A program made the translations under genes and the position numbers. From contig JADBLN010000063.1 of assembly GCA_014894455.1 (NCBI GenBank), positions 1-34,450 on the forward strand: 34,450 nucleotides of DNA. The letters run 5' to 3'. The notes below the pieces were generated by a model. It was not told the origin of the DNA, made no database searches, and saw nothing but the letters and a program-made list of their open reading frames with translations. This document shows positions 9,182 through 34,180 of this stretch, in pieces (the stretch's first letter is position 1; each line of letters starts with the position of its first letter). Source of the DNA: Acidobacteriota bacterium. GTDB lineage: Bacteria > Acidobacteriota > Aminicenantia > Aminicenantales > Saccharicenantaceae.

Positions 9182-11116
9182 CTAACGCTCCGCCGGCTTG
9201 CGCGTGACCGTGACCAGGGGCTCTTTGAGGTAGATTTTTAGGGTCTGGCTCAGAAGTTCCTTCACCTCGAGGATTGACAGGTTTCCGACCTGGATGTCGC
9301 CCACCAAGGGATAATTGATGCGTCCCTCGGTCGATACCAGGCAGGTCTGTTTGAGCTCCGGCATGCCATTGGTGCCGATGTCGAGCGTATCGCCGGGCTG
9401 GATGAAGTTATCCTTTAGCTGGAAGCGGACGGTCACGGTGAAGACGACGGGCACGGCCTTGCCGTCAATGACGAGCGGCTCGTAGACCCACTGCCGGACG
9501 GAGTCGATGGCCGCCTGGTCGAGGAGCGGGATCGAGCGCAGGACCATGACGTCCTTGACCCGGCCTTCCTCGTCGGTCTTGACCCCGAGAATGACGACGC
9601 CCTCCACCAAGGCCACTCGGGCAATCTCCGGGTAAACGGGAGCGACTTCCTTGACGAGCTTCGGCGGCTTGATGTCGTTTTCGGCCCGGACCGCGCCCTG
9701 GGCGAATTTGTCGAGCGTCTTCCCCTTGTCGCCTTCTTTGAGCATGAAGCGGACGGTGACGGTGAAGAGGACTTTGCGGGGCTTGCCTTCGATGACCAGG
9801 GGTTCGTATTTCCACTGCTTGACGGCTTCGATGGCCGCCTGTTCGAGGAGCGGGATGGAGCGCAGAACCCTGACGCCGATGACGTTGCCCTGCTCGTCGG
9901 TCTTGGCCTCGAGGATGACCATGCCCTCAACCCGGGCCTGGCGGGCTATCTGCGGATAGACGGGCGCGACCTCCTTGATGAGCTTGGGCGGCTTGATCTC
10001 GCCCACGGCCCGGACGGCATCCCCCTCGAATTTCTGGAGGTCCTGAGCGCTCGCCCCGCCGCCCGCGACGCTTCCGGCGACTCCGCCCGTGACTCCTCCG
10101 AAGACACCGCCCTCGACACCTCCGGCCACGCCTCCCCCGACGCCCGTGGACACGCCGCCCTGGACCCCGCCGACCACTCCCTCCACGCTCGGTTTTTTCT
10201 TCTCATCCAGCATAAACCTCACGGTCACAGTGAAAGTGACCTCTTGCGGCTTCCCGTCGACGACTATGGGCTCGTAAACCCACTGCTTGACAGCGTCCAT
10301 AGCCGCCTGGTCGAGGGCGGGGATGCTCCTGAGGACCTTGACGCCGGCGACCCGACCGTAGAGATCGGTCGTCGCCTCCATGATGACGACGCCTTCCACC
10401 CCGGCTTTTTCCGCCTCTTCGGGATAGACTGGGTCAACCGTCTTGATGAGCTTGGGCGGCATGACCTTTCCGCCTCCGCTCAGCACGCCGCCGACGACTC
10501 CGCCGGGAACATCGATCTTTTCCCCGCCGGTGCCCGTCGGCTCGCCGAGCCAGCGCGCGACCCTCAAGGTGATGAAATAGGGCTTGAGCTGGGTGTCTTC
10601 GAATCCTAATACAACCGCGCTTTTATCCGGCAGGGAGAATTCCGTGTCCAGCAGGTTGGATTTCTTCTCGCGGCTCTGTTCGTAGACTTCGATCCGGAAA
10701 TGGTTGCGCTCGGGCAAGCGGCCGGGCGTGACCATGACCAGGTATTCCTGTCCGTTCAGCCGGAACATGTGGAAGGCTTTCTCGGACTTGTCTTTCACCC
10801 AGACGAGGTTGGCTTCGGTCAGAAGGCTGAGGTCCTTCAGACCGTAGACCTTCTTGATCCCTTGCTCGGTGACCAAGTCTTCCTCGGGGCCAACGTTGAT
10901 GAAGTTCATGAATTTGAGGTAGGACGAGGTCACCGGCTTGGCCGGCTCCACCGATTTCTCCCGGACCCCCTCGAGGATCCTCATCTTCAGCTCGAAAGCG
11001 GAAGCGGCCGTTTTCGCGCTTTGGACGGCTTCATCGCCGCCCGCCGCGGCCGGCGGCGCGGCCGCCCATAACCCGACGAGGGTTCCTGCCAGCAAGAATA
11101 GGATCGTTCTTTTCAT
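9182..11116 (-). CDS. Exported protein with three TonB C-terminal domains and a polysaccharide-export-like domain
   Basis: 644 residues. A signal peptide occupies about 1-25 (LLAGTLVGLWAAAPPAAA). Residues 26-200 form a unique region rich in beta segments. Three TonB C-terminal domains follow at about 221-303, 376-460 and 484-568. Each has PPKL(I/V)K...P.YP, then VLRSIP.L.QAA, then QW.YEP and FTVTVRF. GGV-rich linkers lie at 204-211 and 312-353. Residues about 572-637 (IQPGDTLDIG, GRINYPLVGDI, LKEPLVTVT) match the Wza-type polysaccharide export N-terminal domain. There is no membrane anchor, so it should be periplasmic or bound to the outer membrane. GGAGGGG precedes the ATG. It follows the ECF sigma/anti-sigma pair by 13 nt and is probably cotranscribed. 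Whether it energises receptors or binds peptidoglycan or glycan is unknown. Confidence 0.8.
   Translation of the reverse strand: MKRTILFLLAGTLVGLWAAAPPAAAGGDEAVQSAKTAASAFELKMRILEGVREKSVEPAKPVTSSYLKFMNFINVGPEEDLVTEQGIKKVYGLKDLSLLTEANLVWVKDKSEKAFHMFRLNGQEYLVMVTPGRLPERNHFRIEVYEQSREKKSNLLDTEFSLPDKSAVVLGFEDTQLKPYFITLRVARWLGEPTGTGGEKIDVPGGVVGGVLSGGGKVMPPKLIKTVDPVYPEEAEKAGVEGVVIMEATTDLYGRVAGVKVLRSIPALDQAAMDAVKQWVYEPIVVDGKPQEVTFTVTVRFMLDEKKKPSVEGVVGGVQGGVSTGVGGGVAGGVEGGVFGGVTGGVAGSVAGGGASAQDLQKFEGDAVRAVGEIKPPKLIKEVAPVYPQIARQARVEGMVILEAKTDEQGNVIGVRVLRSIPLLEQAAIEAVKQWKYEPLVIEGKPRKVLFTVTVRFMLKEGDKGKTLDKFAQGAVRAENDIKPPKLVKEVAPVYPEIARVALVEGVVILGVKTDEEGRVKDVMVLRSIPLLDQAAIDSVRQWVYEPLVIDGKAVPVVFTVTVRFQLKDNFIQPGDTLDIGTNGMPELKQTCLVSTEGRINYPLVGDIQVGNLSILEVKELLSQTLKIYLKEPLVTVTRKPAER
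10058..10183 (-). repeat. GGV-coding minisatellite in the triple-TonB gene
   Basis: This stretch encodes residues about 312-353, a run of Gly-Gly-Val-x units. The DNA is a degenerate 12-bp tandem repeat. A related array lies in the other TonB gene at 24832-24924. Length change between strains would keep the frame. Confidence 0.7.
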
Positions 11117-11129
11117 CTCACCCCTCCAA

Positions 11130-11606
11130 TCAAGGATTTTTTGTCGCCCAGACGAAGACGGTGTCCGTCCCCTGGGGCTGGTAGACGAAGGTTTGGGCGG
11201 GCGCTCCGCCCACGTTGACGTAATCGATCTGGAACCGGTCGGCCGCGCCGACGAAGCCGGGGCCGAAGCCCGGTTTCTCGACCTCCCGGAGCAGCCAGAA
11301 GCCGGTCACGGCGACGACAGCCGCGGTACCCATGGCTGCGGCCCATCGCCAGCCCGCGCCCGCCGGGTTCGGCGGTGCTTCCGGGACCGGCGTCCCGCGG
11401 CCCGCTTGGGAGGAGATCCGTTCCCAAAGGTCCACGGGCATTCCGACCCGGTCCGAGGAGACGAAGAGCCTTCCGGCCTCCGCCCGGCTGAGGAGCCGCG
11501 CCTGGCATTCCGGGCATCTTTCCATATGGTTCCGGATGAGAAAAGCCCGGAGCGGACGGATGGGCAGGGCGACGTAGATGACATCAACTATTTTGCAGAA
11601 GGCCAT
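11130..11606 (-). CDS. Zinc-finger anti-sigma factor (membrane-anchored)
   Basis: 158 residues from the ATG at 11606. The open frame extends further upstream inside the sigma gene. I chose this start because GGAG lies 8-9 nt ahead, giving a 23-nt overlap with the sigma gene. His27, Cys31 and Cys34 (NHMERCPECQ) form the H-x3-C-x2-C signature of ZAS anti-sigma domains. One transmembrane helix lies at about 87-107 (WRWAAAMGTAAVVAVTGFWLL). A short periplasmic tail of about 50 residues follows. The expected role is to hold the upstream ECF sigma factor at the membrane until a periplasmic signal arrives. The TonB-type protein encoded 13 nt downstream is the obvious candidate for sensing partner; that is inference. 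Confidence 0.78.
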   Translation of the reverse strand: MAFCKIVDVIYVALPIRPLRAFLIRNHMERCPECQARLLSRAEAGRLFVSSDRVGMPVDLWERISSQAGRGTPVPEAPPNPAGAGWRWAAAMGTAAVVAVTGFWLLREVEKPGFGPGFVGAADRFQIDYVNVGGAPAQTFVYQPQGTDTVFVWATKNP

Positions 11607-12156
11607 GGTCGTTCTCCAGCAAGGCTTTGATTTTCCGGCGGGCGTTGAAAAGATAAACTCGGGCTGTCGACGCCGAGCACGCAAGGACCACGGAGATATC
11701 CCGGGCCGTGCAGCCCTCGTTCGCCCAGAGGCAGAGGGCCGTCCGTTCGCGCGGCGAGAGCTTGGTCAGGAGGGCCGAAGGCAATGGTTCGGGGTCGGCG
11801 GGATGGGGATTTCCGCCCCGTTCGGCGACGGCCGGCTCGAAGCGGGCCCGGGCCGAGAATTCGGAAAAGCGCCGCTTTTTCCTGATCATGTCGAGCGACC
11901 TCCTGTAGACGATGGTCAGAAGCCAGGTCTTGAAGCTCCTCGACGGGTCGTAACGCGCGAGATGGCGGAAGACCTGGAGGAAGGTCTCCTGGCAGACGTC
12001 CTCGGCGTCCTGCCTGTTCCCGACGACGTTGAGGGCCACGGCCATGACCAGATTCCCATAAGCATCGACCATCGCCCGGCTGGAAACGGAGCTCCCCCGA
12101 AGGCAACCGTCGATGATCTCTTTTTCGTCCAAGGCAGGCTTCTTTCCTTTTTCCAT
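11584..12156 (-). CDS. ECF-type RNA polymerase sigma factor
   Basis: 190 residues with two recognisable domains. Sigma-2 spans about 10-95: YGNLVMAVALNVVGNRQDAEDVCQETFLQVFRHL, written here only to show the DAED/QETF core, then SFKTWLLTIVYRRSLD. Sigma-4 spans about 125-180: LSPRERTALCLW and ARDISVVLACSASTARVYLFNARRK, the helix-turn-helix that reads the -35 element. There is no sigma-1.1 or sigma-3 domain, as usual for group 4. Its last codons overlap the anti-sigma gene. The ATG at 12156 has only a distant G-rich ribosome binding site (about 13 nt). Target promoters cannot be named from this window. Confidence 0.88.
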   Translation of the reverse strand: MEKGKKPALDEKEIIDGCLRGSSVSSRAMVDAYGNLVMAVALNVVGNRQDAEDVCQETFLQVFRHLARYDPSRSFKTWLLTIVYRRSLDMIRKKRRFSEFSARARFEPAVAERGGNPHPADPEPLPSALLTKLSPRERTALCLWANEGCTARDISVVLACSASTARVYLFNARRKIKALLENDHGLLQNS

Positions 12157-12260: not shown

Positions 12261-12369
12261 AACAATAAGTACCTTTATATTTGAGGCGAGGAGGACAGCC
12301 GAACCCCGACTTTGGGAGAGTTTAGCCGGGCAGCGTGCCGGGCGAAAACAGATGGAATGGGGACCTGAT

Positions 12370-12400
12370 GGGGGACATGTACTTTTAGTACGTGTCCCCC
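12370..12400. repeat. GGGGGACA/TGTCCCCC palindrome
   Basis: A 13-bp stem with one mismatch and a 5-bp loop (TTTTA), inside the MITE-like element. The core GGGGACA-N-GTAC is shared with the palindrome at 12466. Confidence 0.8.
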
Positions 12401-12465
12401 TTCCGGTAAATATCTTAGTAGCCTGTTGGCTATAAGATCAGAAGGGGGACCTGAAGGGGGATCAG

Positions 12466-12514
12466 AATGGGGACACGTACCTCCGGTACATGTCCCCATT
12501 CGTACCGGAGGTAC
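12466..12514. repeat. Second GGGGACA palindrome with an extra half-unit
   Basis: A 15-bp stem (AATGGGGACACGTAC, 12466-12480) pairs with 12486-12500 across the loop CTCCG, with one mismatch. It is followed by a small hairpin GTACC-GGA-GGTAC (12502-12514) and then another GTACATGTCCCCC half, so the unit looks partially duplicated. Confidence 0.75.
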
Positions 12515-12601
12515 ATGTCCCCCATCACTGCCAAAACGGGCGGCGACCGATGCGGCGTCCCAAACTCTCCCAGAGGGGAAGTGCTGTCCTCCGAGCCGAT
12601 T

Positions 12602-12630
12602 TTGACAATCTGCGGCGTCTTTGTTAAATT
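12602..12630 (+). promoter_or_regulatory. Promoter of the PAS-GGDEF/S9 peptidase operon, near-leaderless
   Basis: A perfect TTGACA (12602-12607), 17-bp spacer, TAAATT (12625-12630). The expected start point is about 12636-12638, two to four bases from the ATG at 12640, with no Shine-Dalgarno sequence. The mRNA may be leaderless or nearly so. Confidence 0.65.
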
Positions 12631-12639
12631 CATTCGCGC

Positions 12640-13613
12640 ATGGCCGAGAGACAGCGCAAAAGACCGAAGCGGACGCCGCCGGACGCGCCTGCCGCGCCCG
12701 TTTTCCGGGTCGGCGAAGACCGCTATAAGGCGCTCGTCGAACAGCTCCCTGTCGGCGTCTACCGGACGACCCTCGACGGCATGATCATCGAGGCCAACGC
12801 CGTCCTGGCCCGGATGCTGGGCCACAAGAGGCCCCAGGCCCTCTTCAACTGCAACGTCAAGGACTTCTACGTCAGGGGCGAGGACCGCTCCCGGCTCCTC
12901 GAGAAGCTGTCTTCGAAGCCCACGTCGTTCCAGGAGTTCGAGCTCCGGCGCGTCGACGGCCGGAGATTCTGGGTTCGCAACTATTGCCGCGGCGTCAAGG
13001 GGCCCGACGGGTCGATCCACCACCTCGACGGCATCCTCGTCGACATCACCGATAGGAAAACGGCGGACAGGAAGCTCGAACTCGCCCGGCGCAAGCTCCA
13101 GATGACCAACGAGAAGCTCGAAAACCTGTCCCTGACCGACCACCTCACCGGCCTCCACAACCGCCGGGGTTTCTTCACCTTCGGTCTCCAGCAGATGAAG
13201 TTCGCCAAGCGCCTCAAGGAAGACAATTACCTGGTCTTCCTCGATATCGACTACCTCAAAGAGGTCAACGACCTGCACGGCCACGCGGTCGGGGACCAGC
13301 TCCTGCAGGGCGTCGCGACCATCCTCAAGAGCACGCTCCGGGAATCCGACGTCATCGGCCGGATCGGCGGGGACGAGTTCGCCGTCCTGGCCATGCGCTC
13401 CAAGGGCTTGGGCGAACGGGCCCTCCTGGCCAGGATCGAGGAGGGCGTCCAGGCGTTCCGCATGAAAAAGTTCAAGAACCTGCGCCTGTCCGTGAGCATG
13501 GGCCTCGTCCGCGTCGATCCCCAGAAATACCAGCAGCTCGACGATTTCCTGGCCCACGCCGATTTCCTGATGTATCAGCAGAAACGAAGCAAGGAAAGAC
13601 AAGGAAACCTGAC

Positions 13614-13617
<4 letters not shown>
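12640..13617 (+). CDS. PAS-domain diguanylate cyclase
   Basis: 325 residues. A basic N-terminal tail is followed by a PAS domain at about 28-140 (YKALVEQLPVGVYRTTLDG; GILVDITDRK marks its end). A coiled linker (about 141-165) leads to a GGDEF domain at about 166-318. The catalytic GGDEF at 243-247 is intact (RIGGDEFAVL), the metal Asp is in FLDIDYLKEVND, and the product-inhibition motif RxxD (RESD, 234-237) lies exactly five residues before it. It should make cyclic di-GMP under feedback control, with the PAS domain sensing a cytoplasmic ligand or redox state. No transmembrane segment is present. Its stop overlaps the peptidase start by 4 nt (ATGA), so the two are translationally coupled. Confidence 0.9.
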
Positions 13618-24531: not shown

Positions 24532-25530
24532 TCATTTCAGCTGGAACCTGACCGTCACCGTAAAGATGACCGGCCGAGGCCTGCCGTTGATGACCATGGG
24601 CTCGTAGACCCACTGCCGGACGGCGTCGATGGCCGCCTGGTCGAGAAGCGGGATCGACCGCAGGACCTTCACCCCGATGACTCGCCCGTAGACGTCCGTC
24701 GTCGCCTCGACGATGACGATACCTTCCACCCGGGCCTGGCGGGCGATCTCCGGATAAAGCGGCGCCACTTCCTTGACCAGCTTGGGCGGCTTGACGTCGC
24801 CGATGGCCCGGACGGGCGCTTCCATTTCGCCGACGACTCCACCGAGGACGCCGCCGACGACTCCACCCAAGACCCCGCCGACGACGCCGCCCTCGACTCC
24901 GCCCTCAACGCCGCCTTCGACACCGATGTCGGAGAGCGTTTCCTCGGCGATCTGCTCGGGGATCTCGACGGGCGCGACGAGCCGCCCCGGTTCGACCTGG
25001 GCCGTGGCCTGGACGCGCTTGATCCGCGCGCTCGCCGCCGCACTCTTCTTCTTGGCCGGAGGAGGAGGCGGCGGCGGCGGGGGCGGAGGCGGCGCGAGGA
25101 AGGCGCTGTAGACCTCGACCGTCGGCAAATCCCCAGTCCGCATCAAAGGTAGGACGATGAGCAGGAGGAGGATCGCCGCGTGGGCGGCCAGGGACAGCGG
25201 AAAGATCGCCGCCCTCGTTCTCGCCCGGCTTTCCGGATGATAGAAGGAATCCTTGAACATTTCGACCTCCGCAACACGGGATGCGGGGGCTCCGGCCTGC
25301 CGCCGGTCGATCCCGGCCCGGACGCGTCCGGAAAAAGAGGCCCAGTAGTCCGCTTCGCGCGGAACGGCGGGAGACGTTTTGGGAAGTCGGTCGAGGTCCC
25401 GGATAAAATCGAGGTCGCGCCGGCACGCCGGACAGGCTTGGAGATGCTTCTCCACCCGCGAGCGGTCGGTTTCCCGGAGTTCGCCGTCGGCATAGGCCCC
25501 GATGAGTTCCTGGAATTTTCGGTGTCTCAT
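24532..25530 (-). CDS. Anti-sigma zinc finger fused to a TonB protein
   Basis: 332 residues in one uninterrupted frame. Residues 1-45 are a ZAS/zf-HC2 anti-sigma domain, with His29, Cys33 and Cys36 in KHLQACPACRRDL, the same H-x3-C-x2-C as the separate anti-sigma at 11130. A transmembrane helix lies at about 107-130. A run of 12 prolines (147-158) and a Lys/Ala-rich stretch follow, then GGV repeats (203-233) and a TonB C-terminal domain (248-332: PPKLVKEVAPLYP, VLRSIPLLDQAA, QWVYEP, FTVTVRFQLK). Topology is thus a cytoplasmic anti-sigma head, one membrane pass and a periplasmic TonB arm. The ATG follows the sigma stop by 1 nt, with GGAG 6 nt ahead. This would let receptor engagement tug directly on a sigma-binding head. 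Confidence 0.88.
   Translation of the reverse strand: MRHRKFQELIGAYADGELRETDRSRVEKHLQACPACRRDLDFIRDLDRLPKTSPAVPREADYWASFSGRVRAGIDRRQAGAPASRVAEVEMFKDSFYHPESRARTRAAIFPLSLAAHAAILLLLIVLPLMRTGDLPTVEVYSAFLAPPPPPPPPPPPPAKKKSAAASARIKRVQATAQVEPGRLVAPVEIPEQIAEETLSDIGVEGGVEGGVEGGVVGGVLGGVVGGVLGGVVGEMEAPVRAIGDVKPPKLVKEVAPLYPEIARQARVEGIVIVEATTDVYGRVIGVKVLRSIPLLDQAAIDAVRQWVYEPMVINGRPRPVIFTVTVRFQLK
24832..24924 (-). repeat. GGV-coding minisatellite in the anti-sigma-TonB gene
   Basis: A degenerate 12-bp tandem array encoding Gly-Gly-Val-x units (residues 203-233). Related in sequence to the array at 10058-10183. Confidence 0.75.
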
Positions 25531-32764: not shown

Positions 32765-34180
32765 CTATTGGGTCTCACGCCACAAGTCGTTGAGCCAACC
32801 TCCCTTACCCTCGGAATCTATGCCATATCCCCCGAAGAGCCAGAGTTTGCCCTGGAAATCGATCCAGGATACAGAAAAATACCTTCCTCCGGGGACGTTT
32901 GACAAATCGGCCGTGCTCTGCGTGCCATAGGCGCCCCGCTTACCATGGGAACTGCTGCCGGATTCCCAAGTCCAAGCAAGGGTTGTGGGGTCATACTTCC
33001 ACAGGTCATTAAGCCAACCATCATTGCCGGCCAAATAATAGCCGAATCCTCCGAAGAGCCAGAATTTCCCAGCGGGATCGAGCCAGGAGACCGCCGCATA
33101 CCTTCCTCCGGGGACGTTTAACGAGTCGGCCGTGCCCAGCGTGCCGTAGGCGCCCGCCTGATCACGGGCGCTACTGCCGGATACCCAGATCCATTCCAGG
33201 GTTGTCGGGTCATACTTCCACAGATCATTGAGGTCGCCACGAGCGCCGGTCGTATCTAAGCCTTCTCCCCCGAAGAGCCAGAGTATGCCGCTGGAATCGA
33301 TCCAGGTCACAGCGTGTTCTCTTGCCCCGGGGACGTTTGACGGGTCGGCCGTGCCCTTGATACCGTAAGTGCCCGCCTGATCACGGGCGCTACTACCGGA
33401 TACCCAGGTCCATTCGAGGGTTGTCGGATCATACTTCCACAGGTCATTGAGCCAGCCTTTAGTGCCGGCCGAATCATAACCATATCCCCCGAAGAGCCAG
33501 AGTTGACCTTGGGGATCGATCCAGGATACGGCCCCCAATCTTCCCCCGGGGACGTTTGACGGGTCGGCCGTGCCCTGCGTGCCGTAAGTGCCTATCTGAT
33601 CTCCGGTATCACTGCCGGACACCCAGGTCCATTCAAGGGTCGCCGGGTCATACTTCCAGAGGTCATTTAGACTGCCGAAATGGCCGGTTTCATAATAGCC
33701 TAGTCCCCCGAAGAGCCAGAGTTTGCTGCCTGAATCGAGCCAGGACACAGCCCACTTTCTTGCCCCGGGGACATTTGACGGAGCGGCTGTACCCTTCATT
33801 CCGTAGATGCCCGCCTGACCATATGTGCTGCTGCCGGACACCCAGGTCCAGGCAAGGGTTGTCGGATCAAACTTCCAGAGGTCATTGAGCTGGCCGATAT
33901 AGCCGGTCGAATCATAGGCATATCCCCCGAAGAGCCAGAGTGTGCCGCTGGAATCGATCCAGGTCACACCTTGTTCTCTTGCCCCGGGGACGTTTGACGG
34001 AGCGGCCGTACCCTTGATACCGTAAGTGCCCGCCTGATTGACCGTCTTGCTGCCGGACACCCAGGCCCATTCAACGGTCGATACCGGCGTTGCCCCGCCG
34101 CCGTCTCCGCTCCGTTCGCAGGCGGAAAGCAACGCCAAAAATGAAAAAACCAATATCCCCAAATTCCTTGCGCTCTTCAT
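32765..34180 (-). CDS. Kelch-repeat lipoprotein
   Basis: 471 residues. The signal ends in the lipobox LLSAC with the lipidated Cys at 21, so the mature protein is probably tethered to a membrane. It is followed by a Gly-rich spacer. Six nearly identical kelch units of 73 residues then fill the rest. Each contains a WVSGS start, GTYGxKGTA, SNVPGAR or SNVPGGR, (V/A)SW(I/L)D, LWLFGG, and LNDLWKYDPTTLEW. Six such units would close a beta-propeller. The last unit ends in NDLWRETQ, and WAWVSGS before the first unit may supply the closing strand. Kelch propellers bind proteins or glycans. The ligand is not inferable. A promoter is at 34341-34368. Confidence 0.88.
   Translation of the reverse strand: MKSARNLGILVFSFLALLSACERSGDGGGATPVSTVEWAWVSGSKTVNQAGTYGIKGTAAPSNVPGAREQGVTWIDSSGTLWLFGGYAYDSTGYIGQLNDLWKFDPTTLAWTWVSGSSTYGQAGIYGMKGTAAPSNVPGARKWAVSWLDSGSKLWLFGGLGYYETGHFGSLNDLWKYDPATLEWTWVSGSDTGDQIGTYGTQGTADPSNVPGGRLGAVSWIDPQGQLWLFGGYGYDSAGTKGWLNDLWKYDPTTLEWTWVSGSSARDQAGTYGIKGTADPSNVPGAREHAVTWIDSSGILWLFGGEGLDTTGARGDLNDLWKYDPTTLEWIWVSGSSARDQAGAYGTLGTADSLNVPGGRYAAVSWLDPAGKFWLFGGFGYYLAGNDGWLNDLWKYDPTTLAWTWESGSSSHGKRGAYGTQSTADLSNVPGGRYFSVSWIDFQGKLWLFGGYGIDSEGKGGWLNDLWRETQ
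32800..34080 (-). repeat. 219-bp tandem repeats coding for kelch units
   Basis: The unit recurs every 219 bp. For example the CCGAAGAGCCAGA block appears about every 219 bases from 32835 to 33930, six times. DNA similarity is high enough for unequal recombination, which would add or remove whole propeller blades in frame. Confidence 0.8.

What the first reader, a model, noticed from the sequence alone, without database searches (positions are those of the whole stretch)
12290..12592. 303-bp MITE-like element with internal palindromes next to a diguanylate cyclase promoter
Ends are exact 10-bp inverted copies, with a second 11-bp matched block inside each end and no coding capacity. The interior holds GGGGACA-GTAC palindromes. 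The right end stops 9 bp before a perfect -35 box, so insertion may have shaped cyclase expression.
Basis: seen in the sequence. Interest (0 to 1): 0.58.

Follow-up and report, generated by a model that had tools for sequence, protein, structure and literature searches.

The report
Folded mobile repeat invaded by palindromes
The 303-base stretch is a worn copy of an apparently undescribed family of about 200-base, elaborately folded, probably mobile repeats of one group of Aminicenantes bacteria, broken open by ordinary short palindromic repeats and parked just in front of a promoter that was there already.

Summary
The inverted ends and palindromes are real, but the segment is a composite. 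(1) Its ends (12285-12347, 12531-12597) are the arms of a repeat family, here called A. Intact copies are ~200 nt with several helices, occur in 12 of 13 held genomes of the genus and match nothing in Rfam. In 17 copies, 29 of 65 base pairs changed on both sides, against 12.6 in shuffles. (2) The window copy has lost its core to REP-like palindromes (B): 49 exact copies in this genome, none of the control pattern; in three relatives B flanks RAYT-like genes. This genome has no Y1 transposase hit. (3) The -35/-10 pair is native: all ten genomes that keep the cyclase have it, including five without a recognisable element. (4) A looks mobile: for 24 of 52 copies the nearest relative is in the same genome (4.8 expected), and 12 of 53 right ends lie 6-7 nt before TTGA, mostly -35 boxes. 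"MITE-like" is partly right; no clear target duplication or matching transposase was found. Whether the fold works as RNA or single-stranded DNA is open.

The parts
12285..12347 (+). left arm of the family A copy (5' strand of the outer helices)
   Evidence: 82-92% identity to A copies in G012 and G001; 12284-12341 matches the intact G001 element at E 8e-12
12290..12299 (+). left 10-bp inverted end (part of helix P1)
12313..12323 (+). left 11-bp inner matched block
12348..12530 (.). inserted cluster of REP-like palindromes (family B) in place of most of the A core; borders approximate
   Evidence: absent from the orthologous G001 element
12371..12399 (.). B palindrome 1
12469..12497 (.). B palindrome 2
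12502..12522 (.). truncated B palindrome 3
12531..12597 (+). remaining core fragment (GCCAAAACG) and right arm of the family A copy
   Evidence: 12553-12607 matches the intact G001 element at E 9.5e-8
12583..12592 (+). right 10-bp inverted end (part of helix P1)
12602..12607 (+). -35 box TTGACA of the native cyclase promoter
   Evidence: present in all ten orthologous loci
12625..12630 (+). -10-like TAAATT, spacer 17
12640..13617 (+). PAS-GGDEF diguanylate cyclase gene (context)
   Evidence: PF00990 E 1.7e-36
11584..12156 (-). divergent ECF-type sigma factor gene (context)
   Evidence: PF04542 E 9.7e-22, PF08281

Best explanation
The segment is a decayed copy of family A, a non-autonomous mobile intergenic repeat of about 200 nt, whose core was interrupted by a cluster of REP-like palindromes (family B) and then partly lost. 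Shown: A is dispersed and amplified lineage by lineage; its fold is kept through compensatory changes and is stronger on one strand; its right end often lies directly before a native -35 box. Inferred: A spreads in trans with an enzyme that is not its own and recognises the folded strand, most likely as single-stranded DNA, joining the right end next to TTGA(C/T) and so leaving the promoter intact. B is inferred to have been spread by a RAYT transposase that this genome has lost or whose gene is missing from the assembly.
For: Arms match intact A elements, 86 matches in 11 of 13 genus genomes, and 83 core hits in 12 of 13. The orthologous site in G001 has an intact A with the same ends, that in the closest relative G004 has none. 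Covariation: 29 of 65 pairs with changes on both sides, shuffles 12.6 sd 2.0, slid structures 6-13. Forward strand folds better than reverse (-52.5 against -39.9; -61.0 against -27.0). Nearest relative in the same genome for 24 of 52 copies, 4.8 expected. TTGA 6-7 nt after the right end in 12 of 53. B: 49 exact copies, control 0, next to RAYT-like genes in L195, L196, L197. B splits another A core in G012 C283.
Against: No transposase bounded by A arms was found; no clear target duplication (mean shared word 5.21 against 4.89 sd 0.15, 5 of 200 shuffles as high). The left end of A is ragged. Recurrent occupation of the same sites in several species could also be old insertions with gene conversion. 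On pairs predicted on both strands there is no clear G-U over A-C excess (10:6 and 6:6). A single-stranded-DNA route is inferred, not shown.
Confidence: 0.6

Rival explanations
1. Family A is a functional structured non-coding RNA (possibly itself mobile), and the conserved fold is that of the RNA.
For: Covariation over the whole length, conserved wobble pairs and forward-strand preference, loop motif UGUYUGAG..GCGAGUU kept while the helix around it is replaced by another sequence in G008.
Against: No promoter-like site points into the + strand in any of 58 copies (1 of 58 for the reverse strand), while 6 and 7 of 58 have promoters pointing outwards. No Rfam match. Copies vary in number and place.
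Confidence: 0.25
2. The segment is a classical MITE of a DDE transposon, moved by a transposase that binds the terminal inverted repeats.
For: Inverted ends, no coding capacity, intergenic, multicopy in relatives.
Against: The end sequences vary between copies with compensation, the inverted repeat runs the whole length as a multi-helix fold, no matching transposase, no clear target duplication.
Confidence: 0.12
3. Compensatory changes in A come from template switching inside quasi-palindromes, not from selection on a fold.
For: The outer helices are long inverted repeats, the kind of sequence this mutation process acts on (recalled, no call).
Against: Internal loops and wobble pairs stay conserved, whereas template switching would tend to make arms perfect; forward and reverse strands differ.
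Confidence: 0.1
4. The segment is an old, vertically kept part of the cyclase promoter region.
For: Element or right-arm remnant at the same place in G000, G001, G005, G012 and G006; the junction GAGCCGATTTTGACA is identical in G000 and G001.
Against: No recognisable element in five of ten loci, including the closest relative G004; the same family sits beside unrelated genes.
Confidence: 0.15

Closest known systems
REP / REPIN sequences of RAYT (TnpA-REP) transposases
   Same: Family B: short intergenic imperfect palindromes, many copies, flanking RAYT-like genes (abstract of PMC2817692 read)
   Different: In this genome no RAYT is detected; models score below the NF047646 cut-off. The palindromes sit inside another repeat.
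Pneumococcal BOX elements
   Same: Modular, intergenic, mobile-looking repeats with a stem-loop fold as RNA and no coding role (abstract and one section of PMC3049150 read)
   Different: No sequence relation tested. BOX has terminal repeats and target duplications and internal boxB modules; A has interchangeable outer arms on one core and abuts -35 boxes. Only a likeness of organisation is claimed.
Bacterial MITEs (ERIC, Correia, RUP and others)
   Same: Non-coding, inverted ends, intergenic, near genes (passages of PMC10969869 read)
   Different: No fixed terminal repeats, no shown target duplication, no parent transposase; the adjacent promoter is native
HEARO / omega RNA of IscB (recalled)
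   Same: Multicopy structured element of a few hundred nt
   Different: No Rfam match; no RRXRR hit in 13 genomes, though that control was silent

Membership tests
REP/RAYT system (family B) | Many short intergenic palindromes | tested here: met
   49 exact pattern matches in G000, control 0
REP/RAYT system (family B) | Palindromes flank a RAYT gene in a relative | tested here: met
   L195, L197 on both sides within about 100 bp; L196 close on one side, about 600 bp off on the other
REP/RAYT system (family B) | Cognate RAYT in the same genome | tested here: not met
   0 PF01797 hits in G000 (96% complete); could be lost or unassembled
REP/RAYT system (family B) | RAYT model above the curated cut-off | tested here: not met
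   NF047646 52.7-59.4 bits, cut-off 80
MITE (family A / whole segment) | Terminal inverted repeats | tested here: met
MITE (family A / whole segment) | Target site duplication | tested here: inconclusive
   34 copies, mean shared word 5.21 against 4.89 sd 0.15; borders uncertain
MITE (family A / whole segment) | Parent transposase with the same ends | tested here: inconclusive
   No recurrent partner gene next to 55 copies; no exhaustive search of full genomes was possible
MITE (family A / whole segment) | Multicopy and dispersed | tested here: met
Known Rfam RNA family (family A) | Covariance model match | tested here: not met
BOX element (family A) | Sequence of boxA/boxB/boxC modules | not tested
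   Only organisation compared from the paper

The most novel reading that the evidence does not exclude
Family A is a new kind of single-strand mobile element: a ~200-nt multi-helix strand copied around the genome by a borrowed HUH transposase and placed directly upstream of TTGAC, so that it settles at -35 boxes without breaking them and spaces divergent promoters apart, with interchangeable outer arms on one core.
Probability: 0.25. Interest if true: 0.7.

Novelty: new variant of a known kind. Interest (0 to 1): 0.5.

Why it matters
Family A joins a large covarying fold to apparent mobility and to repeated placement beside promoters, in a group whose small repeats I found nothing printed about. 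It offers a concrete test of whether a large folded strand can move as single-stranded DNA. It also shows that an inverted-ended segment can be two nested repeats of different origin.

Tried and rejected
Single 300-bp MITE: rejected, no second full copy in the genome. Promoter created by the insertion: rejected, promoter present in all ten loci. Known RNA family: no match. Reverse transcriptase partner: PF00078 in only 3 of 13 genomes. IscB partner: none, but uninformative because the control was silent. Cargo or partner gene: the recurrent neighbours among 55 copies look like orthologous host genes (the names recD2, lepB, glgA, jag and ispF are my reading of the sequences, no family search was run on them). 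Preference of B for A: 5 of 7 palindromes in 51 loci (356.8 kb) lie within about 300 bp of A, but both sit in intergenic DNA, so it is not claimed (the count used a poorer pattern). Target duplication: inconclusive. A regular left end: not found; an upstream copy of the right arm occurs before most G008 copies only. Literature: Aminicenantes with 'structured RNA' and with 'repetitive extragenic palindromic' gave 0 papers; a broader search listed nothing on Aminicenantes; searches served for comparison. One search's automatic end-finding misplaced the ends of WIN, L125 and L116; one search places TTGA at 6 for them.

Full report
What is there. The inverted ends, the inner matched block, the palindromes and the -35 box are all as described. 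The fold is far stronger than in shuffles on both strands. The segment lies between a divergent ECF-type sigma factor gene and a PAS-GGDEF cyclase gene.

It is two repeats, not one. Searching the whole genome with the segment gives 116 matches; apart from the segment itself none covers more than 80 of its 321 bases, and all fall in the palindrome-bearing middle. In a search of 40 genomes (own included), palindrome matches are spread over the genus, while a second set in G012 and G001 matches only the left end. At the same place before the orthologous cyclase, G001 has an element with the same ends but another interior (L030). Used as a query, that ~200-nt element finds 86 matches in 11 of 13 genus genomes. 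The window holds its two arms, 12284-12341 and 12553-12607 in that search. Between them the core has been replaced by palindromes.

Family A. Two types of outer arms share one core. The 17-copy alignment of type 1 supports one fold: 65 pairs, 95.8% of cells paired, 29 pairs changed on both sides against 12.6 (sd 2.0) in shuffles and 6-13 when slid. A model of the core finds 83 hits in 12 of 13 genus genomes and one weak hit in the 81 other genomes of the order; G002 has none, and G008 has ten copies of a diverged subfamily with type 2 arms. In G008 the helix that never varies in type 1 has a different sequence but still pairs (by eye). Rfam has no match. The + strand folds better than the reverse strand in both types, though pairs predicted on both strands show no clear wobble bias (G-U 10 and A-C 6; 6 and 6).

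Mobility. Of 55 unique copies, 44 have genes called on both sides: 18 divergent, 23 codirectional, 3 convergent (simple gene calling trained on the window). The closest relative is in the same genome for 24 of 52 copies, 4.8 expected. At five intergenic sites used in several species, 11 of 15 comparable copies resemble another copy of their own genome more than the copy at the same site elsewhere (one further copy has no other in its genome, one was left out). That fits lineage-wise spread into favoured sites, or gene conversion. At the cyclase site an element is present in G000, G001 and G005 (behind an N gap), right-arm remnants in G012 and G006, and nothing recognisable in G004, G010, G011, G003 and G002; three of 13 genomes gave no cyclase match.

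Promoters. In all ten loci the -35/-10 pair is present, so it is native. In 12 of 53 right ends TTGA starts 6 or 7 nt after CCGAG; 14 further occurrences are spread over the other positions of the 40-nt flanks. Three of the 12 are the cyclase site and two one other shared site, so nine sites are independent. Most are -35 boxes with a -10 at 16-18 nt (with three ends corrected). L105, without an anchor, has the same arrangement by eye. Promoter-like sites pointing outwards were found in 6 and 7 of 58 copies, pointing into the + strand in 0 and into the reverse strand in 1, against 0.5-0.9 in shuffles. This speaks against routine transcription of A from a sigma-70 promoter of its own.

Family B. 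The palindromes number 49 in this genome by exact pattern and 0 for the control. In L195, L196 and L197 they flank genes that match the RAYT model NF047646 below its cut-off. The listed matches fall into two forms that are reverse complements and differ from a perfect palindrome at one conserved position, which marks orientation. G000 has no Y1 hit, although 10 of 13 genus genomes do. B also splits an A core in G012 C283 and lies beside A remnants at the cyclase site of G006 and in G008.

Verdict. How A moves, and whether it works as an RNA or as single-stranded DNA, is not settled.

Noticed in passing
window 9185-11116 (-): One 644-aa frame matches three TonB C-terminal stretches and a polysaccharide-export domain (PF03544 x3, PF02563), an unusual combination; its DNA repeats inside itself and at 24533.
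   Followed up: partly
window 32768-34180 (-): Kelch-repeat protein gene whose DNA shows a 219-bp period.
   Followed up: partly
L091 (G005 C38): The cyclase promoter and gene start occur twice around an N gap, once without and once with the element: an assembly artefact or two strain alleles.
   Followed up: no
L096/L097 (G004 C21): The cyclase gene of the closest relative matches in two adjoining pieces, suggesting a frameshift.
   Followed up: no
L182-L191 (G008): Most G008 copies of A have a second partial copy of the right arm directly upstream, as in a tandem array.
   Followed up: partly
L029 (G012 C2): A copy with a type 1 left arm and type 2 arm sequences further in, a possible chimera of the two types.
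   Followed up: no
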